From NCBI GenBank assembly GCA_902793685.1, contig CADBEN010000014.1, positions 1 through 53,526 on the forward strand: a DNA stretch of 53,526 nt. Direction: 5' to 3'. Shown piece by piece: positions 4,207-53,526 of this stretch. Position numbers and translations under genes: made by a program. The number at the start of each line of letters is the position of its first letter. Within the stretch, counting starts at the first letter, position 1. The notes beneath the pieces were generated by a model. It saw only the letters and a list, made by a program, of their open reading frames with translations, was not told where the DNA came from and did not search any database. This DNA is from an uncultured Lachnospiraceae bacterium. GTDB lineage: Bacteria > Bacillota > Clostridia > Lachnospirales > Lachnospiraceae.

Positions 4207-4209
4207 GTC

Positions 4210-8684: not shown

Positions 8685-8714
8685 TGTAACACAGTCTGCG
8701 GAGGAATTTCACAA

Positions 8715-11090
8715 ATGAATGAGAAATCTCTCAGAATTCTCGAATATGACAAGATCATCGCCATGCTGTGCGACTGCGCGACCAGCGCGCCCGGCAGGAA
8801 GCTCTGCAGCGGGCTTCTGCCTTCTTCCGACTTAAGCGAGATCACCCTGGCCCAGCGGGAAACCACGGATGCCTGCACCAGGATCCGGATGCGCGGGCAG
8901 ATCTCTTTCGGGGACACCCGGGATATCGGCGGTTCCCTGATGCGCCTTGAAGTAGGCGCTTCCCTCAACACCTCCGAGCTCCTGCACATCAGCGCGCTCC
9001 TCGGAAACGCCGGAAGGGTGCGGAGCTGGGGCGTCCATGAGGACGATGAATTCGAGCCCGACTCTCTCGAAGAAAGCTTCCGGGCTCTGGATCCCATGCC
9101 TTCGGAAGCGCAGGAACTGGCCCGCTGCATTCTGGGGGAAGATCTGGTGGCCGATGCTGCCTCCCCGGAACTGAACCGGATCCGCCGGCAGCTGAAGACC
9201 ATCGACGACCGGATGCACAGTGAACTGAACGGTGTGCTGAATCAGTACCGCGGCTATCTCATGGACAATGTGATCGCCATGAGGAACGGCAGCTACTGCC
9301 TCCCGGTCAAGAGCGAATTCAAGACCAAGGTCCCGGGCGTGGTCCACGACCAGAGTTCCAGCGGCTCCACCGTCTTTATCGAGCCCATGGCCGTGATCCG
9401 TATGAACAACGAGCGCCGGGAGCTGGAGATCAAGGAACAGCGGGAGATCGCGGAGATCCTGAAAAATCTCAGCATCATGCTGATGCCCGGCGTGGAAGCG
9501 ATCCGCGCGGATCTCTCCCTGATGGCCCACCTGGATTTTGTCTTCGCGAAGGCAAAGCTTTCCGGCCAGATGTCTGCCAGCGAGCCCGCCTTCAACACCC
9601 GGGGCTTCCTGGAGATCAAGGACGGCCGGCATCCGCTGATCCCGAAGGACAAGGTGGTCCCGATCACCATCCGCCTGGGAGATACTTTCGATCTTCTGAT
9701 CATCACCGGCCCGAACACCGGCGGCAAGACCGTCTCCCTGAAGACGGTGGGCCTCTTCTCCCTGATGGGTCAGGCCGGACTTCATATTCCTGCCTTCCAG
9801 GGAAGCTCCCTGGCAGTCTTTGAGGACGTGTTTGCCGACATCGGCGACGAGCAGAGCATAGAACAGTCCCTCTCCACCTTCTCCGGTCACATGAAGAACA
9901 CAGTGGAGATCCTGGAGAAGGCGGATTCCCGCTCTCTCTGCCTCTTTGACGAACTGGGCGCGGGTACGGATCCCACCGAGGGCGCCGCGCTGGCCATCTC
10001 CATCCTCTCCTTCCTGCACGGCATGAAGACGCGGACGGTGGCCACCACCCACTACAGCGAGCTGAAGGTCTTTGCCCTCTCCACGCCGGGCGTGGAGAAC
10101 GCCTGCTGTGAATTCGATGTGGAGACGCTCCGGCCCACCTACCGGATCCTGATCGGTGTCCCCGGAAAGTCCAACGCCTTCGCCATCTCCCGGAAGCTGG
10201 GGCTCCCGGAATACATCATCGAGGACGCGAAGACCCACATCGAACGGAACGACGCCGCCTTTGAGGACCTGCTGACCAAGCTGGAGACCGACCGCACCAC
10301 CATCGAAAAGGACCGTGCGGAGATCGACGCCTTCAAGCGGGAGATCGAGGCCATGAAGGCGCGGCAGGAAAAGCAGGAGGAGCACACCGACGAAAAGCGG
10401 GACAAGATCCTGAAGAAGGCGAAGGAAGAAGCCGCCCGGATCCTCGCCGAAGCCAAGGAGACCGCGGACGATTCGATCCGCCGCATCAACCGCCTTACCA
10501 ATGACGCCGGCCTCATGCGGGAGCTGGAGAAGGAGCGCACACGGCTCCGGGAAAACCTGAAGTCCGTCGAGACAAAACAGGGCATCCGCCCCGCGGAAAA
10601 GCCCGCGAAGAGCGAAAAGCCGAAACAGCTGAAGCTGGGTGACAGCGTCCGGGTCCTCAGCATGAACCACGACGCTATCGTCTCCTCTCTGCCGGACAAG
10701 AACGGAAAGCTCTTTGTCCGCATGGGGATTCTGCGGACCCAGGTCAGCCTGGACGACGTGATCCTGATCGGGGAGGATGACTCCGCGGCGAAGGCCAAGG
10801 GTGCCCGGCGTGCCGGCTCCGCCCCCTCCTTCTCGAAGGCCGCCGGCATCTCCCCGGAGATCAACCTCATCGGAAACAACGTGGACGAGGCCTGCGCTGC
10901 CCTGAGCAAATACCTGGACGACGCCCTCCTGGCCCATCTGGACCCGGTCCGCATCATCCACGGCCGCGGCACCGGCGCCCTGAAAAAGGGCATCCGTGAG
11001 TACCTCCGGAAGCAGAAATTCATCAAGTCCTTCAAGGACGCGGAGTTCGACGACGGCGGCGAGGCTGTCACCGTGGTCCACTTCAAATAA
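8715..11090 (+). CDS. mutS2: Endonuclease MutS2 (MutS family ATPase with Smr domain)
   Basis: A 791-residue MutS2. The ABC ATPase core shows Walker A TGPNTGGKT (near residue 334), the MutS signature around EQSLSTFSGHM, Walker B LCLFDELGAGTDPTEGAA and the family motif VATTHYSELK. A long charged coiled coil follows (about 515-640), then a KOW-like segment and a C-terminal Smr nuclease domain (about 715-791) with the HGRGTGALK motif. The family suppresses recombination and, in recent work on Bacillus, acts in rescue of collided ribosomes. The start at 8715 has GGAGG upstream and begins with the typical MNEKSLRILEYDKI. Length is normal for the family. Confidence 0.96.
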   Translation: MNEKSLRILEYDKIIAMLCDCATSAPGRKLCSGLLPSSDLSEITLAQRETTDACTRIRMRGQISFGDTRDIGGSLMRLEVGASLNTSELLHISALLGNAGRVRSWGVHEDDEFEPDSLEESFRALDPMPSEAQELARCILGEDLVADAASPELNRIRRQLKTIDDRMHSELNGVLNQYRGYLMDNVIAMRNGSYCLPVKSEFKTKVPGVVHDQSSSGSTVFIEPMAVIRMNNERRELEIKEQREIAEILKNLSIMLMPGVEAIRADLSLMAHLDFVFAKAKLSGQMSASEPAFNTRGFLEIKDGRHPLIPKDKVVPITIRLGDTFDLLIITGPNTGGKTVSLKTVGLFSLMGQAGLHIPAFQGSSLAVFEDVFADIGDEQSIEQSLSTFSGHMKNTVEILEKADSRSLCLFDELGAGTDPTEGAALAISILSFLHGMKTRTVATTHYSELKVFALSTPGVENACCEFDVETLRPTYRILIGVPGKSNAFAISRKLGLPEYIIEDAKTHIERNDAAFEDLLTKLETDRTTIEKDRAEIDAFKREIEAMKARQEKQEEHTDEKRDKILKKAKEEAARILAEAKETADDSIRRINRLTNDAGLMRELEKERTRLRENLKSVETKQGIRPAEKPAKSEKPKQLKLGDSVRVLSMNHDAIVSSLPDKNGKLFVRMGILRTQVSLDDVILIGEDDSAAKAKGARRAGSAPSFSKAAGISPEINLIGNNVDEACAALSKYLDDALLAHLDPVRIIHGRGTGALKKGIREYLRKQKFIKSFKDAEFDDGGEAVTVVHFK

Positions 11091-39566: not shown

Positions 39567-40028
39567 TTATCTGTGCGGGTCGGAGACGCCGCCGGCGCCG
39601 GGGCCGTAGTTTGAAGGACGGTAGCCGGCACCGCTGTAGTTTGGTCCGTAGCCGTTATTGTAGCCTCCGGAGTTCGGCGTCACTGTTCCGCCGTTTGGGA
39701 CAGTACCGGTCCCGTTCTTCCGGTAGCTGTTCCCGGAGTTCGCGCTGGGCACCCAGACCCCGTTCGCGTCGTAAATGTAGCCGTCGTCCGCGATCCCCAC
39801 GCTGTTGGCGCGGGTGCCGTCCGCGGTGATCCAGTACCAGACGCCGTCGTGCATGACCCACTTGCTCTTCGCGTACTGGCCGTCATCCCCGATATAGAAC
39901 AAACGATTGGTCTGCCAGCCGTTGGGGGAAATGTTGGTCCATGCGCCGGCAAATGCCGGAAACGCTGACACTGCGGCGAGGGCCGCAGCCAGCAGACCCG
40001 CTGCGATGATTCTCATAATTCTGTTCAC
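39567..40028 (-). CDS. Small secreted protein with choline-binding-type repeats
   Basis: A 153-residue exported protein with a signal peptide (about 1-27, ending FPAFA). Residues 28-95 hold two or three short Trp/Tyr/Gly repeats of the choline-binding type (GWQTNRLFYIGDDGQYAKSKW, GVWYWITADGTRANS, GYIYDANGVWV). The rest is a Gly/Asn/Pro/Tyr-rich low-complexity tail. The start is GTG at 40028, 7 nt after GGGAGG. It has the same type of repeats as the proteins at 13451 and 14460 but lacks their N-terminal domains. Function unknown. Confidence 0.8.
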   Translation of the reverse strand: MNRIMRIIAAGLLAAALAAVSAFPAFAGAWTNISPNGWQTNRLFYIGDDGQYAKSKWVMHDGVWYWITADGTRANSVGIADDGYIYDANGVWVPSANSGNSYRKNGTGTVPNGGTVTPNSGGYNNGYGPNYSGAGYRPSNYGPGAGGVSDPHR

Positions 40029-40280: not shown

Positions 40281-43200
40281 TTACTCTTCGTCGTCGTCGC
40301 GCTTCTTAAAGCCGAACAGCGCTCCGAACATGGCGAGCATCGCGAAGAGCATCGGGATCGCTCTGCCTGCCGGCTCACCGGTCTTCGGCAGTGCGCCCGG
40401 CACCGGTGCCTCAGGAATCACAGGCGTTCCGGGATCTGCCGGCGTCGAAGGCGTCGGGGTGCGTCCGCCGGGACCGCCGGGACCGCCGCCGCCAGGTGTG
40501 TTGCTGCCGCCTCCGCCGGTAGTACGGTCATACTCGTTGGTGAACGCAATGTCAAGCTTGCTTCCGGGCACGCCGTCTTCCGTCGTGACGGTGGAAATGG
40601 TCTCGCTGCCGTTCTTCTTCAGGGTGACCGTCTCCTTCAGCCTGCCGTCCTCCACCTTCACCTCCACGGTGATCTCGTAGTAGTCCTTGGAGTAGGTGTA
40701 GTACTTTGCGCCTCCGTCGATCTCGGTGATCTTGTACTTGTAGGTTCCTGCCTTATCGTACTCGATCTTTCCGAACTCCTCGGAGCCCTCGCCGGTGACG
40801 CTGACCTCGATGTAGTAGTTTCCGTCACTGTCCTTCTTGACCGTGGTGCCCTTCGGGAACAGGTCTGTTCCGTTCATTCCGGTCATCCGGAAGGTGAAGG
40901 TCTCGTCGGTGGTGATGGTGCCTCTCTTGATCTTAATGATCTTCTCCACCGGCGGGTCGATCCAGACCGGATTCATCAGCTCGTGCTTGTTCGTGATGCT
41001 GACGGTCCAGGTGCCGGTATCATCCTGCTCATAGACCGCGTCTTCCGCGGTGTAGTACTTCAGGTCGTCCTTCTTCACTTCCTTCTCTTCCGCGGTCCAG
41101 GTGACCTTGACGTCATCGTCCAGGCCGAAGAGGTGCGCCACCTTGCCGGCAGCTTCCTTGACCGCATCGATCAGGTCGTTGAAGATGCTGCCGTCAAGCA
41201 GCTCGCCGTCCTCATCGAATGCGTCGCTCACGGACGCGTCGCTGAAGGATGCCGTCTTCGCCTTGCTGCCGGAAGCAGTGTCAGCGAAGGATGCGGATGC
41301 GTTGGTGACTGCCTCGGATGCGGATGCGTCGCTGATGGTTGCCACGAGCTCCTTGTCGAGGTCGATGAACGCGGTGAAGCTGTTCTCATCGTCCAGCGTG
41401 ACCGTCGTGAACGGCTTGTCCTCACGCTCGCCGTCCAGCTCTCTGTAGATGTCGAAGCTGACCTGCTTCGGACGGAATCCGTCGTAGTCGTCCTCGTCAT
41501 CCCAGACCTTCTCGACCTTGAGCTTGTCCTTGGTGATCTCGCGGTTGATGAAGTTCACGTAGGAGACCTTGTCCTTGCGGATGGTTCCCTCGCCGCCGAA
41601 GACCACAGGCGTGTACAGGTTCTCGCCTTCCTTCTCGGTCACGGTGTAGGTCGCGCCTGCCGGCAGTCCGACGATGCGGATGATCTCGTTCGCCTTGAGG
41701 GTGATGCCCTCGACGCCGTCGACGTATGCCTTGCCGTCCTTGAAGTTCACCGTTCCGGTGATCTTTCCTTCGGTCTTGGTCTCGTCGTAGTTCTTGGAGT
41801 ACGCGGTGTAGAACGCTGCCTCGACATCCAGCGGTTCGCCGTCCTCCTTCGTGACTTCTACGAGGAAGGTATAAGGCGTATCGCCGTGCTCGCTGTCGAT
41901 CTCGTCCTTCGTCGCGACGTTCATGAGCTTCTTGATCGCCAGGTCGCCGGCGTCGGTGCGGTTGATCAGGACGACGTTGGTCTTATCCGGGTCATCCGGG
42001 TCAGCGTCGCTCTTGGATGCAAGGGTGAAGCCTTCCGGTGCGTCAGTCTCTTCGACGGTGTAGCTGATCTCCGTGCCGAGGTAGTACTTCGGCAGGTTCT
42101 CGAAGGTGTAGCTCCACTTGGTGGCGTCGCTCACCGTCGCGATGTTCTTCTGATCGTCGTTGTACGGATAGACTACCATCTCGTCGCCGTCCACCGTCGC
42201 GGTACCGGTGATCTGAAGCGTCAGTTCCTCGCTTCTGGTCTCCAGACGGTCGTCCGCGTCGTCCCAGTACTTCAGGACGTCGTAGGTCCGGTTCTGGTAG
42301 AAGTTCGTGATGGTCGGGGTTGCCTTCTCACTGTCATAGGTGACCTCAGCCTCAAGGTAGCCCTTTCCGCTGTCGGTGACCTCGACCGTGACTTCGATCA
42401 CTCTGTCGAGATCGAAGGTGATGTACGGGTTGTCCTCGTAATTGTAATCAGTGCTGGTATCCGCCTCGGTGATCTTGAACTCGTAGGTTCCGACCTCGGT
42501 GAATTCAAGCCTGCTGAAGGTCGCCACGCCGTCGGCGTCGTTTGCCACGGTTTCGACGGTCTCAGCGTCAGAGCCGCTTGCCAGCGTGAAGCTGAACTGG
42601 CCTTCGTGGATCTCTGCCGGGCCTTCCAGAGCCTTCCTGACCTTCAGGGCAGTATCGCCATCCAGGACTGCCGGTTCCGGACTGTACTTGTTCTCGATCT
42701 CCGTCTTGACCGGCTTGACCGTCATGGTGCCGTCGCCGTTGTCGGTCGCTTCGATCGTGACTGTATGCTCGGTGGTGTCAAGCGTCCAGCCATCGCCTTC
42801 CGTATGCCAGTCAGGCTCGGTCTCCTTCACCGTGTAGGTGTAGGTTCCCTCTCTGTGGAAGGTGATCTTGCCGAAGTCGATGATCTGCGTCTCGGCCTTG
42901 CTGAAGGTCGCACTGCCGGTGGTGTTCTCTGCTCCGTCCTTCTCCGGCAGCGGTGCGTCCGCAGGATTGACTGCCGCGATCTTGAACTCGAAGGTCTTCG
43001 GCTGCCACTCGGTTCCGTCCGCAATGTGCTCGGTCACGACGGTCTTCGTGAGGATCGCGCCGCCCTCGGTGGAGGTGTCATCCTCACCGGTGGGCTCGTA
43101 CTTGTTGACGATCTCCGCACAGGTCGGGACTGCTGTCAGCGTGCCCTTTCCGTCGTCGGTAACTTCGATCGTGACTTCCTTCTCCTCAAGGTCGAAGGTC

Positions 43201-46200
43201 CAGCCATCGCCTTCCTTATGCCAGTCGGGCTCGATCTCCTGAAGGACGTACCTGTAGGTTCCGGCCTTTCTGTAGCTCAGGATGCCGAAGTCGATGATCT
43301 GGGTCTCCTGCGGCTGGCTGAAGGTTGCCGTTCCGGTGATCGGGTTCGGGTCGACCTCGTCCGCGTCGGAAACAGTTGCCAGTGTGAAGGTAAAGGTCTT
43401 ATCCGCCCACGCGGTTCCGTATGCGTCGACCGTCTTCATGAGGACTGCGCCTTCCTCGGTGGAGGTGTCGTCCTCGCCGTAAGGCTCGTACTTGTTCTCG
43501 ACCTGTGCCGCGCCGCCTTCCACGACAGCGGTCAGGTGTCCCTTGCCGTCGTCGGTGACAGTGACCGTTACAGTCTTCGGCTCGTTGTCGCAGGTCCAGC
43601 CTTCGCCGCTCTCCGTGGTCTCAGTCAGCGTGTAGGTATAGGTTCCGGACTTCGTGTACTTCAGCTTACCGAAGCTGATGATCTGCTCACCGGCCTCATT
43701 GAAGGTCGCCTTTCCGTTGACCGGAGCTGCCTGTGCAGTCTCTCCCGCCGTTCCTTCTGCCGGTGCTTCCGCTGCGTCAGAAACGGTGGCCAGCGTGAAG
43801 TCGAAGGTCTTCGGTGCCCATGCGGTTCCTTCCGCGGTCACCGTCTTCTTCAGGACTGCGCCGGTATCGGTGGAGGTATCCAGCTCGCCTTCCGGCTTGT
43901 ACTCGTTGATGATCTCCTGCGTCACAGGCGTAGCAACCAGGTTGCCCTTGCCGTCATCCTCAACAGTAACAACAACAGTTACCGCCTTGCTTTCCGGCGT
44001 GCAGGTCCAGCCTTCGCCGCCGTCCTGTTTCTCAGTAATCGTGTAAGTGTAGGTACCTGCCTTCTTGAACTCGATCGTACCGAAGTCGATCGCACCAGTG
44101 TAGGTGCCGTCCTGGATCTGATCCTCGGTAACGGTGATCCGGCCCGTCGTCTGATACTCGCTTCTTCCCCTCTGTGCCGGGGCCAGCGGCGCGGTTCCGG
44201 TCGTATCGTCCTCGTAAACCGCGGAGCCTTCGCCGGCACTGATCTCAAAGACGAAGGTCTTGCCAGCAGCTCCAAGGCTTGTCTTGGGCTCGTCGGTCTT
44301 GACGGTCTTGTTCACCGCAACGGTGTCATTTCCGTCCGTATCCCAGGTGCCCGTCGGCTTGTAGGTATTGGTGATCTCGGCCACTTTGCCGCCTTCGACC
44401 TCAGCCTTCAGGGTTCCGTCCCTATTGTCGGTCACGACGATATTGACGGTCTTCGGTCCCTTGTTGTCACAGCTCCAGCCCTTCCACTCTTCGCCGGAGA
44501 GATCGGTCGTCTCCGTAACCTGGTAGGTGTACCGACCTGCCTGATTGAATGTGATCACGCCGAAATCGATGGTCAAAGTATCCGCTTTCTCGAATTTCGC
44601 GGTGCCGGTCGTGTTGTCGACCAGCTTGCCGTCAGAGCCTTCCACCTTCGGGAACGGTGCGTTTCCGAACGGTGTGATCTCAAACTCGAACTCCTTGGGC
44701 GCCCACTTCGTGCTTGTGGTACCTTCGATCTTGACGGTCTTCTTGAGAACCGGCGTCACGCTGGTGTCCAGCTTGCCCTCGGCAGCGTACTTATTGATGA
44801 TGACGACCTTCTCGGTCTGCACTCCCAGAGATCCGTCGCTGTTCTGAGTGACCTGGACAATAAATTTGTGCTCAGCATTGTCATATGTCCAGCCGTCATT
44901 CTTGCCGGTCGTAGTCTCCTTGACCTTGTAGGTATAGGTTCCTGTATGATCGAACGTAATCTTGCCAAAGTCAATCTGCTTCTGACCGACTTCAGTGAAG
45001 GTCGCGGTTCCATTCATGTTCACCACGCCGTCCTTCATCGGCATCGGAGCATCCTGCGGGTTTTCCGCCTCGATCACAAAGTCAAAGGTCTTCGGCGCCC
45101 ACCCGTTGTCTTTGGCTTCGACCTTCTTTGTGAGAACTTCACGTTCAAACGTATCCAGCTCGACTTTCGGGCCGTAGGTATTCGTGATCTCAGCTTCAGT
45201 CGTCACCGTGACGGCGAGCGTTCCATTCTGCTGCTTGTCGACCGTAACAACAACCTCGTGCGTTTTATTGTCGCAGATCCAGAGGTCATCACTCTGCGTG
45301 GTCTCCTTGACGTTGTACTTGTAGGTTCCTTTCTCTGTGTACACGATGGTACCGAAGTCGATCGTCTGTGTTCCTTTCTGGCTGAAGGTCGCGCTTCCGG
45401 TCGTAATATCCTTTCCGGTGCTGTCCTTCGCCAGCGGTGCTCCGTCAATCGCTTCGATCTTGAACTCAAAGGTCTTTTCGGGGAACCTAAGTTCCCTGGA
45501 CTCAACGGTCTTCGTCAGGATCGGCGTTACACTGGTATCCAGCACTTCCGGCTTATAGGTATTCGTGATCGTGACCTGTTCAGCTGTCGCGGTCAGAGTT
45601 CCGTCCAGATTGTCAACAACATTGACCGTGATTGTATGCGGCTCATTGTCATAGATCCAGGCGTCCTTATCCGCGCCGGCAGGCTTCTGTTCCGTTATAG
45701 TGTAGCTGTATTCACCAGCCTTCGTGTACTTAATGGTACCGAAGCCGATTTCCTGCGTTCCTGCCTGGTTGAAGGTTGCGGTGCCGGTGGTGTTCACTGC
45801 TCCGGCCTTCTCCGGCAGCGGTGCGTCCGCAGGATCGACTGCCGCGATCTTGAACTCGAAGGTCTTCGGCGCCCAGTCAGTACCGGCCGCTTCAACCGTC
45901 TTCTTAAGAATCGGCGTCGCATCGGTATCCAGCTTGCCTTCCGCCTTGTAGGTGTTCGTGATCGTATCGTCGTTCGTGTACTTAATATCTGCGGTGATGT
46001 TTCCGTCACCGTTCTCCGTAAGGGTCACAGTGGCAGTGATGTCACCGGACTTCGATACGCCGCCCGGAAGGGCAGAGGTCTCACTGATCCTGTAGGTCAG
46101 GGTCTTCGTGCCGACACCGTCTTTGTAATCAGCTGCATCGAAGTCGTCCTGCGTGACCTTGATCGACTTGAAGTTCTGGCTGCCATCAGCTGAGTAATCA

Positions 46201-49200
46201 AGGGTTTCGACCGCTTTGCCAGCTGCGTCATACAACGTGAACGTATACTTCTCGTCAGTCTTCCAGTCTCTGCCGACCAGTTTCTTGATGCCTGCCAGCT
46301 GGAATTCACCCTCCGCCTTGTAAGTGTTGGTGATCTTCAGCGGGTCGTTCTCATCATAGGTCGTATCATAATGATCAATCGGGGTTTCCTCGACAGTATA
46401 GACATAGGTGTATCCTTCCTTGTCATACTTCGGAAGAGAAGCAAAGGTATAGGTGTTGCCGCTCCAGGTCGGCGTCACGGATGCCGCTGCCGTTGCTTCG
46501 CCGGCTTCCGCAGTCACCTCTTCCTTCTGAGCCCCCGGCTTTTTGCTCATCCGATACAGGGTCAATGAGACTTCCGTCTCATTTTCATGGGTCTTGTCCG
46601 GATCCTTGTCCACCCAGATCTTTTCACCGGACACGTCGATGGTCTCTGTACGGGTGTTGGTGATATCTTTACCGGTGATGGTGTAATCCGTTCTGTCCCA
46701 GGGCTCCGCCGCATCGTCGTAGTAGATGTCGTAATCCGCGACATTCGCATACTTGCCCGCGACTTGGCTCTCTCTTACAGAATAGGTATACGGATAGCCG
46801 GAGCTGTCATACTTCGGAAGTCCGGAATATGAATAGGTATTTCCATTCCAGGAAACTGCGTACGAACCGCCGCCGGCCTGTCCCTTCTTGACCGTCTCGC
46901 TCTCCCGGTACAGGACCAGAGTGACATCCGTGCTGTTGTCGTGCTGCCTCGCGCTTTCGCCTTCCTTCCAGGTCTTAGTACCTGAGAATGAAGTGCTGCC
47001 TCTCAGGGTGTTAACAAAGTTTCTCCCGGTACTGTCAGGACGGGACTCATAATAATCTCCCTCTTCCAGATAGGTCGGCTTCTTTACCTCCTCAGAGACC
47101 GAGTACTTGTATTCGTAGCGCTCGTCATTATATCTGGGCAGGTTTTCAAACTTATAAGTGTCCCCTGTCCAGGCCGGCACAAGATCCAAATCCTCTCTGA
47201 CGTTCTGTCCGTCAATAAGTGAGGACCTGCTCAGTTTGACGATCAGTTCCTCAGCATTGTTATGCTGATACTTTCCGCCGTCGTTCCAGGTCTTCTTTCC
47301 CTGGACCGTGATCATCTCCTGATTCAACGTGTTTACGATATCGAAGAAATTGCCGTCACCGTCTTTGTCCAGATAGGTCGTGGTAAACCCTGCGACGCTT
47401 CCCTCTTCGATCTCATACTTATACGCTTTGCCGTCTTCATCGTATTTCGGAACGTCCTTAATGGTGAAGATGTTACCGTCCCAGCTGAGTCTCGTATCCT
47501 TGTCATACTCATACTCAGTTCTATTTCCGGATTCGTCAATCTGATACAGGTTCAGAGCCAGAGCCTCGTTCGCAACGTGCTTCGTGTCTCCGGCAATCCA
47601 GGTCTTCGTGCCTACGATATCCCAGTCCAGCGTATTTTTGACCGTATAGTTCTGCGCCACGCCGTTCGGTGTATACTGTACGTCGATCCAGTGGTCAGTA
47701 CGGGTCGCTGCATGTGCATTAATGGCATAATACTGCGCCGGGAGATATACATCTACAACGCCTTTTTCTCGCTGGTAGAAAGTAATATTCTCAACACCTG
47801 TCCGGCCATTTCCGGTCCATCCCGTCTTCTCGACTGTCAGTTCTCCACTTTCTTCAAGCCCGGAAAGATCTATCTCCTTTCCGTCGATCTTGATCGTCTG
47901 GATATGATAGCCTGTATTCGGAGTCATGGTGATCACCTTCGGCTCACCATAGTTTCTGTATCTCCATTCACCCTGCTCAGAAATGGTGCCTCCGGTACCT
48001 CCGGCTGTCAGATCATTCACTGTAGTCTTCAGGGCAAAGGGCTTAATCTCCGTACATATACCTGTTCCGCAGCTATAACCGGTCCAGCGGATGTTAAATC
48101 CTTCCTCACTGAGATTCGCTCTTGCCACTAATCCGGAGTTTAAGCTATACGGCGTATCCTGATCAAGTGCATAAGCGCGGACGCTTCCATCCTCCTGCTG
48201 CTTAAACGCTGTATAGGTAACCTTTGTAGGATTTGTACCCTTCAGCGGCAGTGTATAGAAGGTATCTTCGATTCCTTCCAGAAGATATATACTCTCCTGC
48301 CTTCCGCCTGCGTTTTTCCCGGCAGTTACGTCAAGATCTACAAAAGACAACAGGGTCTGGCCGGAAGTGACCCCAGGGACTTTAAAATTCATGTCCATGG
48401 AAATACCGCCGATTCCGCCGCCGCCGGGTCCGGCCTCGAGGTTGTGTTGGCCGTTTTCTTTCATGATAACCTGGCCGGTTCCCTGGTTAATCTTATAAAT
48501 ACTGACATTGGAGACCGTCATAACTACTGGAAGCGTACTTCCAGTTGATGTTCCGTCCAGGATCGTTACGGCATCAGGAAATGTCAGCGTATAATAGTGG
48601 TCTGTTTCTACCAGTGCATTCTTTAATGTGTTAAGATTCGGGTAAATTTTTGTATCCGGATTAAACGAGATACTGGACCCGTTTTTTTTGAAACGCGAAT
48701 CGCCGGAGTTTGCGGCAACCCGGTTCCCGTCCTTGTCGTATTCCTGGAAAGTTGCTTTGCTGATAGCCAGCTTTCCAGGATTAAACACTGCCTGAGTAGC
48801 TTCGATCCAGTCTGTCTGCAGTCCCGGCTGAATATGCCAGTCTGAGCCTCCGGTCACATCTACCGTGGCCTTTGAACTCGTTGCCACATCCAGGACTGCG
48901 TCGGAGATCGTCGCAGGATACTTATAATCGTCCTCGATTTCACCCTGAATGATTTCCACATCATCATATCCGGGCACAGGGACTTCCTGCACAGTGTACT
49001 TGATCTCTTTGCCTTCGCTGTCATATCTCGGTACATCCTCGAAGGAGCCCTTCCAGTTTCCTTCTTCATCCGGGGTAATGGTAAGAGTCTGGACGACTTC
49101 ATCCCCGTTCTTCAGCTGCACAACAACACTTGCAGGCCGTTTCCCCTCGGCGTTGTTACCGTCCTGCCACGTTTTTTCAATATCAATGGTAATCTTCTGA

Positions 49201-49304
49201 TCCACATCCGGTGCTGCAAACGTGTTGACCGGAAGACCGGTGACCAGCATCATGGCGCTGAGTGCAGATGCAAGACACCGTTTGAATTGTCTGTATCTGT
49301 TCAT
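40281..49304 (-). CDS. Giant LPKTG-anchored surface protein with Cna_B and FctA/Spy0128-type modules
   Basis: A 3007-residue adhesin- or pilin-like protein. Layout: signal peptide (1-31, ending NTFAA); one Cna_B module (about 36-112); a unique region of about 400 residues (about 160-560) that may be the binding tip; about four Cna_B modules (about 560-990; GTKTW and YTVxE motifs); an FctA-like module (about 1000-1110); nine diverged tandem FctA/Spy0128-like modules (about 1110-2340); Cna_B-like modules with an inserted Ser/Ala-rich segment (about 2340-2800); a final FctA-like module; a Gly/Pro linker; and LPKTG (2972-2976), a hydrophobic helix and KKRDDDEE. Cna_B and FctA modules usually form Lys-Asn isopeptide bonds. 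GGAGGG precedes the start. No sortase gene is in the window. Confidence 0.93.
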   Translation of the reverse strand: MNRYRQFKRCLASALSAMMLVTGLPVNTFAAPDVDQKITIDIEKTWQDGNNAEGKRPASVVVQLKNGDEVVQTLTITPDEEGNWKGSFEDVPRYDSEGKEIKYTVQEVPVPGYDDVEIIQGEIEDDYKYPATISDAVLDVATSSKATVDVTGGSDWHIQPGLQTDWIEATQAVFNPGKLAISKATFQEYDKDGNRVAANSGDSRFKKNGSSISFNPDTKIYPNLNTLKNALVETDHYYTLTFPDAVTILDGTSTGSTLPVVMTVSNVSIYKINQGTGQVIMKENGQHNLEAGPGGGGIGGISMDMNFKVPGVTSGQTLLSFVDLDVTAGKNAGGRQESIYLLEGIEDTFYTLPLKGTNPTKVTYTAFKQQEDGSVRAYALDQDTPYSLNSGLVARANLSEEGFNIRWTGYSCGTGICTEIKPFALKTTVNDLTAGGTGGTISEQGEWRYRNYGEPKVITMTPNTGYHIQTIKIDGKEIDLSGLEESGELTVEKTGWTGNGRTGVENITFYQREKGVVDVYLPAQYYAINAHAATRTDHWIDVQYTPNGVAQNYTVKNTLDWDIVGTKTWIAGDTKHVANEALALNLYQIDESGNRTEYEYDKDTRLSWDGNIFTIKDVPKYDEDGKAYKYEIEEGSVAGFTTTYLDKDGDGNFFDIVNTLNQEMITVQGKKTWNDGGKYQHNNAEELIVKLSRSSLIDGQNVREDLDLVPAWTGDTYKFENLPRYNDERYEYKYSVSEEVKKPTYLEEGDYYESRPDSTGRNFVNTLRGSTSFSGTKTWKEGESARQHDNSTDVTLVLYRESETVKKGQAGGGSYAVSWNGNTYSYSGLPKYDSSGYPYTYSVRESQVAGKYANVADYDIYYDDAAEPWDRTDYTITGKDITNTRTETIDVSGEKIWVDKDPDKTHENETEVSLTLYRMSKKPGAQKEEVTAEAGEATAAASVTPTWSGNTYTFASLPKYDKEGYTYVYTVEETPIDHYDTTYDENDPLKITNTYKAEGEFQLAGIKKLVGRDWKTDEKYTFTLYDAAGKAVETLDYSADGSQNFKSIKVTQDDFDAADYKDGVGTKTLTYRISETSALPGGVSKSGDITATVTLTENGDGNITADIKYTNDDTITNTYKAEGKLDTDATPILKKTVEAAGTDWAPKTFEFKIAAVDPADAPLPEKAGAVNTTGTATFNQAGTQEIGFGTIKYTKAGEYSYTITEQKPAGADKDAWIYDNEPHTITVNVVDNLDGTLTATAEQVTITNTYKPEVLDTSVTPILTKTVESRELRFPEKTFEFKIEAIDGAPLAKDSTGKDITTGSATFSQKGTQTIDFGTIVYTEKGTYKYNVKETTQSDDLWICDNKTHEVVVTVDKQQNGTLAVTVTTEAEITNTYGPKVELDTFEREVLTKKVEAKDNGWAPKTFDFVIEAENPQDAPMPMKDGVVNMNGTATFTEVGQKQIDFGKITFDHTGTYTYKVKETTTGKNDGWTYDNAEHKFIVQVTQNSDGSLGVQTEKVVIINKYAAEGKLDTSVTPVLKKTVKIEGTTSTKWAPKEFEFEITPFGNAPFPKVEGSDGKLVDNTTGTAKFEKADTLTIDFGVITFNQAGRYTYQVTETTDLSGEEWKGWSCDNKGPKTVNIVVTDNRDGTLKAEVEGGKVAEITNTYKPTGTWDTDGNDTVAVNKTVKTDEPKTSLGAAGKTFVFEISAGEGSAVYEDDTTGTAPLAPAQRGRSEYQTTGRITVTEDQIQDGTYTGAIDFGTIEFKKAGTYTYTITEKQDGGEGWTCTPESKAVTVVVTVEDDGKGNLVATPVTQEIINEYKPEGELDTSTDTGAVLKKTVTAEGTAWAPKTFDFTLATVSDAAEAPAEGTAGETAQAAPVNGKATFNEAGEQIISFGKLKYTKSGTYTYTLTETTESGEGWTCDNEPKTVTVTVTDDGKGHLTAVVEGGAAQVENKYEPYGEDDTSTEEGAVLMKTVDAYGTAWADKTFTFTLATVSDADEVDPNPITGTATFSQPQETQIIDFGILSYRKAGTYRYVLQEIEPDWHKEGDGWTFDLEEKEVTIEVTDDGKGTLTAVPTCAEIVNKYEPTGEDDTSTEGGAILTKTVVTEHIADGTEWQPKTFEFKIAAVNPADAPLPEKDGAENTTGSATFSKAETQIIDFGKITFHREGTYTYTVKETEPDWHTEGDGWTLDTTEHTVTIEATDNGDGTMTVKPVKTEIENKYSPEPAVLDGDTALKVRKALEGPAEIHEGQFSFTLASGSDAETVETVANDADGVATFSRLEFTEVGTYEFKITEADTSTDYNYEDNPYITFDLDRVIEVTVEVTDSGKGYLEAEVTYDSEKATPTITNFYQNRTYDVLKYWDDADDRLETRSEELTLQITGTATVDGDEMVVYPYNDDQKNIATVSDATKWSYTFENLPKYYLGTEISYTVEETDAPEGFTLASKSDADPDDPDKTNVVLINRTDAGDLAIKKLMNVATKDEIDSEHGDTPYTFLVEVTKEDGEPLDVEAAFYTAYSKNYDETKTEGKITGTVNFKDGKAYVDGVEGITLKANEIIRIVGLPAGATYTVTEKEGENLYTPVVFGGEGTIRKDKVSYVNFINREITKDKLKVEKVWDDEDDYDGFRPKQVSFDIYRELDGEREDKPFTTVTLDDENSFTAFIDLDKELVATISDASASEAVTNASASFADTASGSKAKTASFSDASVSDAFDEDGELLDGSIFNDLIDAVKEAAGKVAHLFGLDDDVKVTWTAEEKEVKKDDLKYYTAEDAVYEQDDTGTWTVSITNKHELMNPVWIDPPVEKIIKIKRGTITTDETFTFRMTGMNGTDLFPKGTTVKKDSDGNYYIEVSVTGEGSEEFGKIEYDKAGTYKYKITEIDGGAKYYTYSKDYYEITVEVKVEDGRLKETVTLKKNGSETISTVTTEDGVPGSKLDIAFTNEYDRTTGGGGSNTPGGGGPGGPGGRTPTPSTPADPGTPVIPEAPVPGALPKTGEPAGRAIPMLFAMLAMFGALFGFKKRDDDEE
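42270..46330 (-). repeat. Tandem FctA/Spy0128-like modules within the giant surface protein
   Basis: About ten units of roughly 105-145 codons. Each unit begins near LDT-x-KKTV, continues WAPKTFxF, then xIDFGxITYxxxGTYTYxVxE, GWxxDN and VTVxVTDxxDGTLxA, and ends ITNTYKPEG. Copies are diverged, several with loop insertions, so most are old duplications. Near-identical blocks (for example DADAPLPEK-type stretches at about 42950 and 45820) point to local gene conversion. Confidence 0.85.
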
Positions 49305-49520
49305 ATTCCCTCCGTATCATGGAATTCCTGATTCCTTTTAAATCCTGCTTTCCCCTTCTCGAGCCTCAGGGAGGCAAAGAGTCCCGAACCTGTCCGGGAT
49401 CTTTATTATTTATGCTTCCCGGACATCGGAGCCGCGCCGGGCTTCGGCAGCTCCCCGGACCGCGGCATGCCGCAGGCCATGTCCCGGACCTGCATCTCCG
49501 CCGTGTTTTTCCTGTATCTC

Positions 49521-50183
49521 TCATGCTTCTTTCCTCACTACATTCATGTTGATGCCCACCTGGCCGCGCCTTCGGATCAGTACGTCCTCGCAGCCCGCCG
49601 CCTTCAGGGAAGATGAGAGGTCCGCAAGGATGTTCCGGAGATAAGACTTGTGGTTCCTGTCCCCCTGCCAGAGGTACTGCTCGATCTCGTCTGTGCTGAA
49701 AACTGTGCCGTTCCGGACAATCAGGTATTTCATCAGGGTCCTGGTCTTGCTGTATTTGAAATCCAGGATTTTTTCTCCTGCCATGACCTCCTGGTTCTCC
49801 AGAAGCTTGATCCGTGTCTTCGGGCCCGGTTCATACCGCAGCCGGGAAAGCTCTTCCCCGATGATCTCCTCGGTGATCGGCTCTGAAAGATACCCGCTGG
49901 GGCGGAGCTTGATGGCATCCGCCGCGTACTGATTGCTGTCCGCCATGAAGATCAGGTTCAGCTTCGGGAACATTCCGCTAAGGACGCGGCCCAGGATGAT
50001 GCCGTTCAGCGGTTCCATCTCGATCCGGAGAAACGCGACGTCCGGGACCAGGTCCCTTACCGCTTCCAGAAGCCTGTCCGTATCCTGAAACAGACGGACT
50101 GATGCATCCGGCCTTGCCTTGAGAACCGCGGACTTCAAAAATTCCAGTTTCTGGTTATCCCGATCCAGTATGATCACTTTCAT
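49521..50183 (-). CDS. Transcription factor with degenerate receiver domain and winged helix
   Basis: A 220-residue protein. Residues 1-115 have the fold of a response-regulator receiver (VIILDRDN, then PDVAFLRIEMEPLNG), but Arg53 replaces the phosphoacceptor Asp and Glu101 stands at the conserved Lys (YLSEPI for YLxKPI). The C-terminal domain (about 125-220; FKYSKTRTLMKYLIVRNG, then KSYLRNILADL and VLIRRRGQVGIN) resembles the OmpR/SARP winged helix. It lies between two surface-protein genes on the same strand, and no kinase is near. The start is uncertain: an ATG nine codons upstream (50210) is also possible. Confidence 0.78.
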   Translation of the reverse strand: MKVIILDRDNQKLEFLKSAVLKARPDASVRLFQDTDRLLEAVRDLVPDVAFLRIEMEPLNGIILGRVLSGMFPKLNLIFMADSNQYAADAIKLRPSGYLSEPITEEIIGEELSRLRYEPGPKTRIKLLENQEVMAGEKILDFKYSKTRTLMKYLIVRNGTVFSTDEIEQYLWQGDRNHKSYLRNILADLSSSLKAAGCEDVLIRRRGQVGINMNVVRKEA

Positions 50184-50684
50184 TCCTAATACTTCATCCC
50201 TTTCTGCCATACCGTGATGCCGATCTTACTCAAAACCTGCCCGATGAATTTCATTAAGTTAATTAATTCATGAAGATTATTTGCCTATTTAAACATACCT
50301 TAATTTAACTTATATCATTTATTACAGATTTGCAACCCTTAAGCGGCACAAAATATGAACAAAACATCCCAACCAAAGTTTTCCGGAGAGGTCAAGGCAG
50401 GGGAAACGACACAAAACAGTTCAGAAATATTCATGTTAATATACGCAAACAATCCTGTTTTTCATCAAGTAATTAAATTCAAGACGATCTATTGCGTATA
50501 TTGCTCATTAATAACATCAAAAAAGCACGGCCCCGGGATCTCTCCCGGGGCCGTGCCTCGTTTTGTTTCTTTGATTCTGTTTTGTTTCTTTGCCCCCCGA
50601 TCCGGGGTGCCCGCATCAGCTTCCTTCATCCGGTCCGGGCCGCCGTTTCCGGCGGTCCGGCCATCTGTTTTTTACTGAATGCCT
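50184..50684. other. 501-bp A+T-rich intergenic region between regulator and second surface protein
   Basis: The A+T-rich left part carries an inverted repeat, TAAGTTAATTAA (50255-50266) with TTAATTTAACTTA (50300-50312), probably in the promoter region of the regulator. A direct repeat TGTTTTGTTTCTTTG lies at about 50559-50591. The right end holds the terminator of the second surface protein and the duplicated GGGCCGCCG hairpin (50637-50658). No gene is seen. Confidence 0.6.
50519..50556 (-). terminator. Terminator of the second surface-protein gene
   Basis: Perfect 14-bp arms GCACGGCCCCGGGA (50525-50538) and TCCCGGGGCCGTGC (50543-50556) with a TCTC loop; leftwards it ends in six T residues. 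Confidence 0.92.
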
Positions 50685-53526
50685 TTACTCCTCGTCGTCC
50701 TCGTCGCGCTTCCTGAAGCCGAACAGCGCTCCGAACATGGCGAGCATCGCGAAGAGCATCGGGACTGCCTTGCCGGAAGACTCACCGGTCTTCGGCAGTG
50801 CGCCCGGCACCGGAACCTCCGGAAGCACCGGAGAACCGGGCTCCACCGGAGTGGACGGGGTGTGTCCGCGGCGTCCGCCGCCACCACCACTGTTGCCACC
50901 GCCTCCGCGGTTGGTTCTGTCGTAGGTGTTGACGAACTCGATGCCAAGGACATCTCCGCCGACGCCGTCGCTGGTCTTGATGGTGTAGATCTTGTCACTG
51001 CCGTTCTTCACGACGGTGACATTCTCGACAAGCTTTCCGCCCTCGACCTTCACTTCCGCCGTGATCTCGTAGGTGTCGGTGGAGTAGGTGTAGTAGCCTG
51101 CGCTTCCCTTGACCTCGCTGATCCTGTACTTATAGGTTCCGGCCTTATCGTACTCGATCTTGCCGAACTCCTCAGAGCCTTCGCCGGTGATGGTGAGCTC
51201 CATGTACGGATTTCCGTCGGCGTCCGCGTAGAGCGTCGCGCCTGCCGGGAACTCTGTGGTTCCGTCCAGTCCGGTCATCCGGAAGGTGAAGGTCTCAGCC
51301 GTCGTGATGGTGCCTCTGATCACCGAGATGATCTTCTTCACCGGCGGATCGATCCACACCGGGCTCATCAGCTCGTGGGTGTTGGTAAAGGTCAGCTCGT
51401 GGGTCTCGGTATCGTAATCGTCGTAAGTCACGTCGTAGTAATCCGGGACTTCCGTCTCTTCGACGCGGAAGCTGATCTCCGTGTCGTCGTCGATACCGAA
51501 GAGCGTTCCGATCTTGCCTGCCGCTTCCTTAACAGCATCCTTCACAACGGTGAACAGGTCGTCGAAGATCGTACCGTCCTTAAGAACGCCATCCTCATCG
51601 AACGCATCTGTAACTGCTGCATCCGAGAAGCTTGCGGAGCTGGAGCTTGCGGTCGATGCGCTTGCCTTCGTGGTGTAGGCACTGCTTGCGCTTGCGTTTG
51701 CATTGGTCTTAGTTGCGTCGGCAACGGTCGCCACTGCGTCGTAGCCGTCGAGGTTGAAGAGCTCAGTCCAGCTGTTCTCTGCGGTCAGTTCAACATTTTC
51801 CGCATACAGCTTTTCTTCCTCGCCCTGTACCTTATAGACGTTGACCTTGATCTTGTCCGGACGGAATCCGTCGCGGTCTTCTCCATCTTCCCACTTCTTG
51901 ATGATCTTCAGGGTCCGCTCATCCAGCTCGCGGTTGATGTAGCTCACGTACTGGGTCTTTCCGTTCAGGATGGTTCCTTCGTTGTTGAAGAATACCGGAT
52001 CATAGTTCGTGGATGCATCGACAGATTCCTCGACCTTGTAGGTCGCGCCTGCCGGCAGTCCGACGATCCTGACGATCTCATCCGAGTGCAGCGTGAACTT
52101 CGCCTCGCCGTTCCTGAAGGTGATCGTTCCGGTGGTCTTTCCGTCGCTGCTGTTTGCCTTGGCAGTGTAGAAGACAACATCCTTCGAGAAAGTTCTGTCA
52201 TCGTCAGATTCAACGGTGACTGTGAACTGATAATCCTTCGTGTCGTCCTTGTCGAATTCCTTCGTCGCGGAGTTCACGTACTTCTTGATGCTCAGGTCGC
52301 CGGTGTCGGTGGTGTTGACGAAGATCAGGCCCTCGTCAGCTCTCTCGGCATCGCTTGCCGTGGACTTGGTGTAGCCTGTGACGTCGCTGGTCTCTTCCGC
52401 GTAGTACTCGATCTCATAACCGTTGTACTTCGCAGGCAGGTTCTCAAGCGTGAGCGTCCAGTTGTTATCCGCGTTCAGGGTAACTTCCTGTTCGAACAGC
52501 GTGTCTCCGGAAACCATTCCGTAGACCATGATGGTGAGCGTATCCGGGCGGATCTGCAGCCTGTTGTCTGCATCGTCCCAGACCTTCGTCACGGTGTAAG
52601 TCGTATCCTCGTAGATGTTGGTAAAGGTCGTTTCGCCTGTGTAGTTCGTCTTCGCGCTCATCGTTCCGTCGCCGTTGTCGGTCAGGGTAACGGTGGCGGT
52701 GACTTCATGCTCATCGTAGGTTACGTAGCAGTACGGCTCACCCTTCTGGTCAGGCTCGATCTCCCTGATGGTATAGGTGAACTTACCCTTTTCAAGATCT
52801 TTTGCCGTGTACGTGATCGGAGCAAATGCTGCGACCGGGTTTGCGTTGCTTGCGGAAGCCGTTCCAAGCGGTTCACCGGACTCGTCGAGAAGCTCGAACT
52901 CGTAGGTCTCGCCTTCCTCCCAGTCACGTCCCTTAAGTTCCTTGGTGACCTCGAGCGTAATTTCGGTCGGCTCGATATCATAGGTGTTCGTGAAGGTCAG
53001 CGGGTTCTTCTCGGCGGAGGACGGAGATGCTGTCAGCGTTCCGTCTCCATTGTCAGTGACATTGACAGTAACAGTCTTACCGGTTTCAGCCTCAGGATCA
53101 TTGGTAACGCCCTTGACAGATCCGGTCTCAGTCACCGTGTACTTGTAGGTTCCCGGTGCCGTGAAGCTGAAGCCGCCAAATGTTGCCTTGGGCGCTGCCT
53201 TGGTCACGGTTCCGGTCATCGTTTTCGCTTCCGGTGCTCCGTCTTCTGCAGCCACCTCGATGTCGTAGCTCCAGTCTTCAGGACCAGTCATGCTCTCTAC
53301 GGCCTTGCTCATGATCTTCTCGACCGGGAATTCCGCTGTGGTCGGCTCGACAGAGTAGGTGTTCGTAAAGGTCAGCGGTTCATCATCAGTAGAGGTAGGC
53401 GTCGCCGTCAGAGTTCCGTCGCCGTTATCAACGACAGTAACCGTGACAGTCTTTCCTGCCGCATCTTTGTCATTTGTGACACCTGCGACCGTTCCGGTCT
53501 CGCTCACTGTGTAGGTATATTCTCCG
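50685..53526 (-). CDS. Second LPKTG-anchored surface protein (partial, 5' end outside the window)
   Basis: The reading frame is open to the window edge, so about 945 C-terminal residues are seen. It has FctA-like modules (GTYKYTVTETG, TVNVTDNGDGTLTA), then Cna_B-like modules (VTKVWDDADNRLQIRP, IIKKWEDGEDRDGFRP), an inserted Ser/Ala-rich segment with an amphipathic helix, a last FctA-like module, a Gly-rich linker, LPKTGE and a hydrophobic helix followed by RKRDEDDEE. The order and sequence of the last 550 residues parallel the 3007-residue neighbour, so the two genes are paralogues. A sortase elsewhere should anchor it to the wall. Confidence 0.93.
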   Translation of the reverse strand, partial: GEYTYTVSETGTVAGVTNDKDAAGKTVTVTVVDNGDGTLTATPTSTDDEPLTFTNTYSVEPTTAEFPVEKIMSKAVESMTGPEDWSYDIEVAAEDGAPEAKTMTGTVTKAAPKATFGGFSFTAPGTYKYTVTETGSVKGVTNDPEAETGKTVTVNVTDNGDGTLTASPSSAEKNPLTFTNTYDIEPTEITLEVTKELKGRDWEEGETYEFELLDESGEPLGTASASNANPVAAFAPITYTAKDLEKGKFTYTIREIEPDQKGEPYCYVTYDEHEVTATVTLTDNGDGTMSAKTNYTGETTFTNIYEDTTYTVTKVWDDADNRLQIRPDTLTIMVYGMVSGDTLFEQEVTLNADNNWTLTLENLPAKYNGYEIEYYAEETSDVTGYTKSTASDAERADEGLIFVNTTDTGDLSIKKYVNSATKEFDKDDTKDYQFTVTVESDDDRTFSKDVVFYTAKANSSDGKTTGTITFRNGEAKFTLHSDEIVRIVGLPAGATYKVEESVDASTNYDPVFFNNEGTILNGKTQYVSYINRELDERTLKIIKKWEDGEDRDGFRPDKIKVNVYKVQGEEEKLYAENVELTAENSWTELFNLDGYDAVATVADATKTNANASASSAYTTKASASTASSSSASFSDAAVTDAFDEDGVLKDGTIFDDLFTVVKDAVKEAAGKIGTLFGIDDDTEISFRVEETEVPDYYDVTYDDYDTETHELTFTNTHELMSPVWIDPPVKKIISVIRGTITTAETFTFRMTGLDGTTEFPAGATLYADADGNPYMELTITGEGSEEFGKIEYDKAGTYKYRISEVKGSAGYYTYSTDTYEITAEVKVEGGKLVENVTVVKNGSDKIYTIKTSDGVGGDVLGIEFVNTYDRTNRGGGGNSGGGGGRRGHTPSTPVEPGSPVLPEVPVPGALPKTGESSGKAVPMLFAMLAMFGALFGFRKRDEDDEE

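What the first reader, a model, noticed from the sequence alone, without database searches (positions are those of the whole stretch)
40281..53526. Paired giant LPKTG surface proteins flanking a phosphorylation-independent regulator
Two paralogous adhesins with many Cna_B and FctA/Spy0128-like modules lie on the same strand on either side of a small winged-helix factor whose receiver domain has lost its Asp. The layout suggests a self-contained adhesion locus whose regulator reads something other than phosphorylation, for example partner binding, redox state or protein level. Phase-dependent or population-heterogeneous expression would fit, but that is speculation.
Basis: partly seen in the sequence, partly recalled or inferred. 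Interest (0 to 1): 0.72.

Follow-up and report, generated by a model that had tools for sequence, protein, structure and literature searches.

The report
Kinase-free regulator pair controlling surface fibres
A bacterium carries two sister gene switches that have lost the usual phosphate-accepting site, and both appear to read the same rare DNA sign, one at a giant surface-adhesin locus and one at a pilus-type gene cluster, so that its surface fibres may be controlled by how much switch protein is made and not by a sensor kinase.

Summary
At 49521-50210 (-) lies a receiver plus winged-helix regulator with the phosphoacceptor Asp replaced by Arg62, between two LPKTG adhesins built from FctA and Cna_B modules. 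Adhesin 2 runs off the contig end.

The loss looks selective. Of 28 receiver columns conserved in 96 Asp-bearing relatives this protein keeps 25 and loses two Asp positions and the active-site Lys (its sister keeps 23). A histidine kinase gene lies within 1.5 kb of 68 of 80 assessable Asp-bearing relatives and 0 of 6 Asp-less ones.

The trio was not found elsewhere, has no sortase, and a terminator separates adhesin 2 from the regulator. More telling is a sister Arg-type regulator (48% identical) that heads a signal peptidase-pilin-sortase gene run. Both promoters carry two copies of one palindrome, TCATTAAGT-N5-ACTTAATGA. At up to 3 mismatches the 2.5-Mb assembly holds three such sites, all in these promoters (shuffle controls 0 of 3000 and 0 of 1000). 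Recognition helix and wing are 76% identical between the sisters, receivers 47%.

Best reading: a phosphorylation-independent, autoregulating and probably cross-binding pair linking adhesin and pilus loci. Binding, sign and signal are inferred. Phase-variable expression has no support.

The parts
49521..50210 (-). Asp-less (Arg62) receiver plus winged-helix regulator, 229 aa from the first ATG; the family-conserved Met is residue 10 (codon starting at 50183). The C-terminal extension of Asp-bearing relatives is missing
50025..50027 (-). codon of Arg62 (CGG) at the place of the phosphoacceptor Asp
50251..50273 (.). operator-like palindrome O1, TCATTAAGTTAATTAATTCATGA, 2 mismatches to TCATTAAGT-N5-ACTTAATGA
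50462..50484 (.). operator-like palindrome O2, TCATCAAGTAATTAAATTCAAGA, 4 mismatches; 211 bp from O1, within a 40-nt direct repeat 75% identical to the one that holds O1
50522..50559 (-). intrinsic terminator (17-bp stem plus T run) downstream of adhesin 2 and upstream of the regulator
49305..49520 (-). 216-nt leader between regulator and adhesin 1; no minus-strand terminator reported in it, no operator-like site; predicted RNA structure -80.9 kcal/mol, z -2.39
40281..49304 (-). adhesin 1, 3007 aa, 12 FctA and 7 Cna_B stretches, LPKTG anchor
50685..53526 (-). adhesin 2, C-terminal 946 aa only (contig end), 4 FctA and 2 Cna_B stretches, LPKTG anchor

Best explanation
The factor is a pseudo-receiver response regulator that binds DNA without phosphorylation. 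It sits as a dimer on the palindrome TCATTAAGT-N5-ACTTAATGA, present twice (211 bp apart) before its own gene, and thereby autoregulates the regulator-adhesin 1 unit. A sister Arg-type regulator on contig C40 has the same palindrome twice (192 bp apart) before its own gene and heads a signal peptidase-pilin-sortase gene run. Because their DNA-reading surfaces are much alike, each probably binds both promoters, as homodimer or heterodimer, and ties the giant-adhesin locus to the pilus locus. Output would be set by how much of each regulator is present. Shown from sequence: loss of the pocket, retention of most other conserved receiver positions, no detected kinase neighbour, shared operator-like sites in these two promoters, sister relationship, gene order at C40. 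Inferred: binding, dimerisation, cross-binding, co-transcription of regulator and adhesin 1, sign of regulation (a repressing loop is my guess), and any role for adhesin 2.
For: Pocket loss and retention: 25 of 28 group-conserved receiver columns kept; the lost ones are positions 17, 62 and 110.
Kinase absence: a kinase gene within 1.5 kb on the same strand for 68 of 80 Asp-bearing relatives with full flanks (76 of all 96), against 0 of 6 Asp-less.
Sisterhood: support 100/99 on a stem of 1.17, so one shared Asp-to-Arg change is the simplest reading.
Operators: found as repeats within each locus separately; 3 places in the whole assembly at up to 3 mismatches, all in the two promoters, reversed-pattern control 0; in 139,591 bases of own-genome sequence read at up to 4 mismatches only the four sites, control 0; 0 of 3000 shuffles of the 474-bp window promoter have a site with 2 or fewer mismatches; 0 of 1000 shuffled promoter pairs share so similar an inverted repeat at any spacer of 0-12; upstream (up to 600 bp, less at contig ends) of 102 regulators the only sites at up to 4 mismatches are these four, control pattern 1.
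DNA-reading part conserved between the sisters: recognition helix and wing 76% (best other relative 58%), receiver 47% (best other 45%), linker 12%.
C40: regulator overlapping a Peptidase_S26 gene, then LPNTG and LPSTG proteins, two sortases and an LPRTG protein.
Against: No binding or expression data. The palindrome was derived from the same four sites, so finding them again is by construction; the weight is on the match between two loci, on the absence of others, and on the shuffles. The whole genome was scanned only to 3 mismatches, so uniqueness of O2 (4 mismatches) is shown only for the stretches. A plain shared-word comparison of the two promoters was not significant at widths 14 and 20 (39 and 6 of 60 shuffles as good; 1 of 60 at width 28). 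Across the family the pattern is at or below chance level (34 sites in 31 of 397 genomes including my own two, against 58 for the reversed control by my hand count). The sister keeps fewer receiver columns (23 of 28; it also lost two positions outside the catalytic set, 88 and 95; 13 of 17 in the stricter set against 15 for the window protein), and both keep only 6 of 12 conserved linker and DNA-binding residues, which could mean relaxed constraint. No operator-like site precedes the C6 gene that may be the start of adhesin 2, so control of adhesin 2 has no support. The kinase contrast is not phylogenetically independent: the six Asp-less proteins need four changes on the tree.
Confidence: 0.55

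Rival explanations
1. The regulator works through a partner: it forms heterodimers with a response regulator that still has its Asp (for instance the third own homologue on C5), so that a signal enters through the partner.
For: A third own homologue with intact Asp exists (36% identical; Asp column). BldM/WhiI in Streptomyces is a precedent for atypical regulators pairing (PMC4125116, passages).
Against: No operator-like site lies near the C5 gene, and no kinase was detected next to it either. The DNA-reading parts of the two Arg-type sisters match each other best.
Confidence: 0.1
2. Arg62 is itself the switch: the protein-arginine kinase McsB phosphorylates it, or marks the protein for ClpCP.
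For: The genome has an McsB-family gene (PF00217 E 4.5e-49) between an McsA-like gene and a ClpC-like gene (these two names from my reading of the sequence). The ALR survey counts 63 sequences with Arg at this place and names arginine phosphorylation as a possibility (PMC4395418, passages).
Against: McsB-ClpC is general housekeeping in many Bacillota (recalled). No residue context was tested. Only two Arg-type sequences are known here.
Confidence: 0.06
3. The palindrome belongs to another transcription factor that controls both loci, and the two Arg-type regulators are decaying relics.
For: Half of the conserved linker and DNA-binding-domain columns are changed (6 of 12 kept in each) and the C-terminal extension is gone.
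Against: Full open frames in both; 15 and 13 of 17 non-catalytic conserved receiver columns kept; recognition helix and wing 76% identical after long divergence. Near the 102 regulators examined the site occurs only with these two.
Confidence: 0.14
4. Ordinary two-component regulator driven by a distant kinase or a small phosphodonor.
For: The Pfam receiver match is over the cut-off.
Against: Phosphoacceptor Asp, second acidic-pair Asp, switch Thr and active-site Lys are all replaced; no kinase detected nearby.
Confidence: 0.03
5. The regulator controls only its own gene and adhesin 1; the likeness to the C40 promoter is left over from the duplication and has no functional cross-talk.
For: The operator-like sites lie only before the two regulator genes.
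Against: The palindrome is the best shared inverted repeat of the two upstream regions, so its survival suggests selection by a common binder; much alike recognition helices make non-crossing binding less likely.
Confidence: 0.12

Closest known systems
Aspartate-less receivers / pseudo-receivers (ChxR, HP1043, RitR, WhiI and the phosphorylation-independent BldM; PMC4395418, PMC12632262, PMC4125116)
   Same: Receiver fold without a working phosphorylation pocket, DNA-binding output domain, no obvious partner kinase; a palindromic operator and a cross-acting partner are reported for BldM
   Different: Arg at the Asp place is uncommon (63 sequences in the 2015 survey); here two sister pseudo-receivers share one operator-like site and each heads a surface-protein locus
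Asp-bearing receiver/winged-helix relatives (96 found here)
   Same: Homologous over receiver and winged helix (24-37% identity to the window protein for those in alignment A1)
   Different: They keep the Asp, nearly all keep a C-terminal extension (CDYY...YSWAE; conserved columns 83-97%), and 76 of 96 have a kinase gene within 1.5 kb; the window protein and its sister have none of the three
Pilus-island regulators of group A streptococci (RofA, Nra, MsmR; PMC7900414, passages)
   Same: A regulator gene in a SipA-pilin-sortase region; RofA and Nra autoregulate
   Different: RALP and AraC-type proteins, not receivers
FpsR of Ligilactobacillus ruminis (PMC12688256, passages)
   Same: Receiver/OmpR-type regulator of a gut commensal that promotes pili
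   Different: Its gene is followed by a histidine kinase gene; described as part of a typical two-component system
CmrRST of Clostridioides difficile (section 19 of PMC12632262; abstract of PMC12548384 in a listing)
   Same: CmrT is a pseudo-receiver regulator; the system affects colony morphology and motility
   Different: CmrT is encoded with a kinase and a canonical regulator; here no kinase was detected

Membership tests
Aspartate-less / pseudo-receiver response regulators | recognised as a receiver by PF00072 | tested here: met
   30.3 bits against a cut-off of 30.2; sister 35.5 bits
Aspartate-less / pseudo-receiver response regulators | lacks residues needed for phosphotransfer | tested here: met
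   D to R62, D to R17, T to A90, K to E110
Aspartate-less / pseudo-receiver response regulators | acts without phosphorylation | not testable with these tools
   needs purified protein
OmpR/PhoB-type winged-helix response regulators | Trans_reg_C domain | tested here: inconclusive
   18.8 bits, below the cut-off of 26.2; none at E 0.01 for the sister or for a typical relative. The family profile aligns with full-length regulators 1p2f, 1kgs and PhoP 9ji3 into the DNA-binding domain (that these are OmpR-type is recalled)
OmpR/PhoB-type winged-helix response regulators | binding to tandem direct repeats (recalled as usual for the class) | tested here: inconclusive
   the candidate sites are 9-N5-9 inverted repeats, though the two window sites themselves lie in a direct repeat; binding not tested
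Sortase-assembled pilus locus (window locus) | pilus-type sortase gene within the locus | tested here: not met
   the genome's five sortase matches are on C40 (two), C55, C3 and C27, none on C14
Sortase-assembled pilus locus (sister locus on C40) | signal peptidase-like gene, LPXTG pilins and sortases in one gene run | tested here: met
RofA/Nra-type pilus regulators | RALP family protein | tested here: not met
   Pfam at E up to 1 reports a receiver, Trans_reg_C and a below-cut-off ATP-grasp match, and no RALP-type family

The most novel reading that the evidence does not exclude
Two sister pseudo-receivers with Arg in place of the phosphoacceptor Asp form a closed two-locus circuit. Each is encoded at the head of a surface-fibre locus (giant adhesin, pilus), both read the same palindrome, found at up to 3 mismatches only at their own two promoters, and the relative amount of the two proteins, or of their heterodimer, decides which fibre the cell displays, with no sensor kinase involved. 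Arginine phosphorylation by McsB at residue 62 would be a direct input not excluded by the data.
Probability: 0.3. Interest if true: 0.76.

Novelty: new variant of a known kind. Interest (0 to 1): 0.6.

Why it matters
A 2025 review states that the mechanisms which activate and inactivate bacterial pseudo-receivers remain a mystery (PMC12632262, abstract). Here is a case with a defined candidate DNA target, a natural sister for comparison, and many Asp-bearing, mostly kinase-paired relatives, so the question 'what replaces phosphorylation' can be put to direct test with two small proteins and a 23-bp site. It also suggests how a bacterium may tie expression of very large isopeptide-module adhesins to that of a sortase pilus.

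Tried and rejected
Rejected: (a) a known RNA element in the region: Rfam at relaxed threshold gave 9 matches, all below the gathering scores, most of them on the terminator hairpin. (b) The leader 49305-49520 as a regulator binding site: no site at up to 6 mismatches (palindromic pattern, scanned on one strand). (c) The palindrome as a family-wide element: not above the reversed control in 397 genomes, and absent upstream of the other 100 regulators. (d) A conserved adhesin-regulator-adhesin trio: not found. N-terminal adhesin search (600 aa): 8 of 150 family genomes including the own one, outside it only short matches of about 75-132 residues. C-terminal search (655 aa): 6 of 7 genus genomes including the own one, weak matches outside it. 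Five regions in four congeners were fetched and read, with no match to the regulator profile at E 1e-3; the other weak genus matches were not fetched. (e) A wider family of Asp-less receivers in pilus clusters: the Asp-less receiver/coiled-coil protein of L140 was found in 1 of 397 genomes, its own, at E 1e-7. (f) The plain shared-word comparison of the two upstream regions was not significant at widths 14 and 20 (39 of 60 and 6 of 60 shuffles as good) and reached 1 of 60 at width 28; the significant results came from inverted repeats. (g) search for related loci in genome contigs returned one locus, a distant receiver (27% identity over 88 residues).

Limits: the 102 regulators come from 100 regions taken mostly best-first from the places listed, plus the window and two own-genome stretches; weaker rows were not fetched, and the larger searches scored only the first 7 to 12 candidates of each genome. 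Two loci (L143, L146) did not give a full-length frame and were left out; one (L131) gave two regulators. A few relatives are from other families of the same order. Kinase, sortase and anchor neighbours were called with home-made profiles and patterns (the sortase profile rested on two sequences), so misses are possible. The assembly is 94.6% complete in 63 contigs. The taxon was not named by any tool and I do not name it.

Full report
What is there. The window ends inside a surface-protein locus. On the minus strand, in order of transcription, come the C-terminal 946 residues of adhesin 2 (50685-53526, cut by the contig end), a 229-aa regulator (49521-50210) and a 3007-aa adhesin 1 (40281-49304). 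Pfam finds FctA x12 and Cna_B x7 in adhesin 1, and FctA x4 and Cna_B x2 in adhesin 2; both carry LPKTG near the C-terminus. They are paralogues, 55% identical over 647 residues, and the last codons and 3' flank are 78% identical in DNA. A strong intrinsic terminator (50522-50559) lies between adhesin 2 and the regulator; the scan reports no minus-strand terminator between regulator and adhesin 1. So regulator and adhesin 1 may form one unit, and adhesin 2 probably does not belong to it.

The regulator. It matches the receiver family just over the curated cut-off and the OmpR-type C-terminal domain below it. The pocket is destroyed: Arg17, Arg62, Ala90 and Glu110 stand for the second acidic-pair Asp, the phosphoacceptor Asp, the Thr and the Lys. 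To ask whether this is general decay I collected relatives. A search of 397 genomes of the family found matches at E 1e-15 or better in 94, the own genome included; 100 regions were fetched from the places, and with the window and two own-genome stretches this gave 102 full-length regulators. In 96 the Asp is kept. The six without it are two Arg (window, and own contig C40), two Ser and two Glu. Of 28 receiver columns group-conserved in the 96, the window protein keeps 25; the three it loses are positions 17, 62 and 110. Of 17 other strongly conserved receiver residues it keeps 15. The C40 sister keeps 23 of 28 and 13 of 17, its losses of the 28 being positions 18, 62, 88, 95 and 110. For the window protein the loss is therefore close to selective; for the sister less cleanly so. 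The linker and DNA-binding domain have changed more (6 of 12 conserved residues kept in each), and the C-terminal extension seen in relatives is missing in both.

Kinases. A histidine kinase gene lies within 1.5 kb on the same strand for 76 of 96 Asp-bearing relatives, 68 of 80 when only those with full flanks are counted, and for 0 of 6 Asp-less ones (Fisher p 4e-5). Because the six need four changes on the tree, this p-value overstates independence. Twelve Asp-bearing proteins with full flanks also have no detected neighbouring kinase, so orphan status alone is not special.

The sister. The genome carries a second Arg-type regulator, 48% identical, grouped with the window protein at 100/99 support on a long stem. 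It overlaps a Peptidase_S26 gene and is followed by an LPNTG protein (Cna_B, SpaA and a subtilase domain), an LPSTG protein (SpaA), two sortases and an LPRTG protein with a pilin D1 match just below the cut-off. That is the layout of a sortase pilus operon. A search of 391 genomes of the class with this protein gave matches in 18; a check of the loci that supplied (50 sequences: 46 Asp, 2 Arg, both own, 1 Ser, 1 gap) gave no further Arg-type member.

The operator. Repeat searches within each upstream region, run separately, showed a 40-nt direct repeat at the window (50249-50288 and 50460-50499) and a 25-nt inverted repeat at C40. Set side by side they contain one palindrome, TCATTAAGT-N5-ACTTAATGA: perfect at C40 11456-11478, 3 mismatches at C40 11264-11286, 2 at window 50251-50273, 4 at window 50462-50484. 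Scanning the 2.54-Mb assembly at up to 3 mismatches gives exactly the first three places and none for the reversed pattern. At up to 4 mismatches I could scan only 139,591 bases of own-genome sequence: the four sites and no others, control 0. No shuffle of the 474-bp window promoter had a site with 2 or fewer mismatches (0 of 3000), and no pair of shuffled promoters shared so similar an inverted repeat for any spacer from 0 to 12 (0 of 1000; best shuffle 4 differences, observed 2). A plain shared-word comparison had been unconvincing. In the regions up to 600 bp upstream of all 102 regulators, shorter at contig ends, the only sites at up to 4 mismatches are the four at these two loci, against 1 for the control pattern. 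Across 397 family genomes the pattern is not above its control (34 sites in 31 genomes, control 58 by hand count), so it looks private to this regulator pair. The two sites are 211 bp apart at the window and 192 bp at C40 (centre to centre), about 20.1 and 18.3 helical turns at 10.5 bp. The protein side fits: recognition helix and wing are 76% identical between the sisters, more than between either and any other relative (best 58%), while receivers are 47% (best other 45%) and linkers 12% identical.

How it probably works. A dimer that forms without phosphorylation binds these palindromes, autoregulates its own unit and, because the sister reads the same site, couples the adhesin and pilus loci. 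The site nearest the gene lies 68-90 bp upstream of the family-conserved start, downstream of the best -10-like stretch that I could see by eye; repression by looping is therefore my guess, but the consensus promoter scan does not support any one promoter firmly. Binding, dimerisation and sign are inferred. What feeds into the pair is unknown: amount of protein, heterodimer formation as in BldM-WhiI (PMC4125116, passages), or arginine phosphorylation. For the last, the genome has an McsB-family gene between McsA-like and ClpC-like genes, and the ALR survey raises the possibility for Arg-type receivers (PMC4395418, passages). The control rang in none of 14 named genomes although Bacillus subtilis, which I recall as having McsB, appears among the controls, so that control is not informative.

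The trio is not a module seen elsewhere. Adhesin searches found only partial, weak matches outside the own genome (8 of 150 and 6 of 7 genomes, own included), and five surface-protein regions from four congeners, with very large or paired LPKTG proteins, hold no match to the regulator profile. No sortase match lies on this contig. No operator-like site at up to 6 mismatches lies in the about 640 bases before it. Nothing supports phase variation.

Literature. I saw the outline and sections 7, 18 and 19 of PMC12632262, passages of PMC4395418, PMC4125116, PMC12688256 and PMC7900414, and search listings. The papers listed did not, by title and start of abstract, describe a pseudo-receiver pair linked to sortase pili; 'pseudo-receiver' with 'sortase' gave no paper. 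Listings were capped, and most subscription papers are not in that library.

Verdict. It is a new variant of a known kind.

Noticed in passing
L037 (G000:C40) 5142-9908 (-): The LPNTG protein of the pilus cluster carries a subtilase (Peptidase_S8) domain inside a sortase-anchored surface protein.
   Followed up: no
L140 (G081:C121) 2-9171 (-): Kinase, Asp-bearing regulator, an Asp-less receiver (also Arg) fused to a long coiled-coil-like tail, signal peptidase, LPETG protein and a pilin-like start in one run; the Asp-less receiver was found in no other of 397 genomes at E 1e-7.
   Followed up: partly
L100, L148, L089, L117, L107, L103: A separate, well-supported clade of regulators without detected kinase neighbours, with Asp, Ser or Glu at the phosphoacceptor place; the three without Asp (L148, L089, L103) follow a similar gene of about 200 codons: repeated pocket drift in orphans.
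   Followed up: partly
L071, L138, L118, L098, L110, L094, L150: A receiver-only frame of 123-143 codons directly follows the receiver/winged-helix regulator.
   Followed up: no
window 49305-49520 (-): The leader of adhesin 1 has a stable predicted RNA structure (z -2.39, 3 of 200 shuffles as stable); it could be an attenuator.
   Followed up: partly
L204 (G005:C1 1056000-1075900): A same-genus genome has four very long frames (3626-4802 aa) with adhesin-like matches between 1,064,375 and 1,099,718; the one read whole (3633 aa) has LPKTG near its end but then no membrane-spanning tail.
   Followed up: no
L202 (G000:C6) 2-3061 (-): A VWA plus Cna_B surface-protein gene runs off the contig end and could be the missing 5' part of adhesin 2; not joined.
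   Followed up: partly
L037 11513-11641: Two 61-nt direct repeats, 97% identical, each with a hairpin-like inverted repeat, lie upstream of the C40 regulator; possibly a mobile or REP-like element.
   Followed up: no
window 39567-40028 (-): A 153-aa secreted-looking protein with aromatic repeats lies downstream of adhesin 1; no match in NCBIfam at E 0.1.
   Followed up: no
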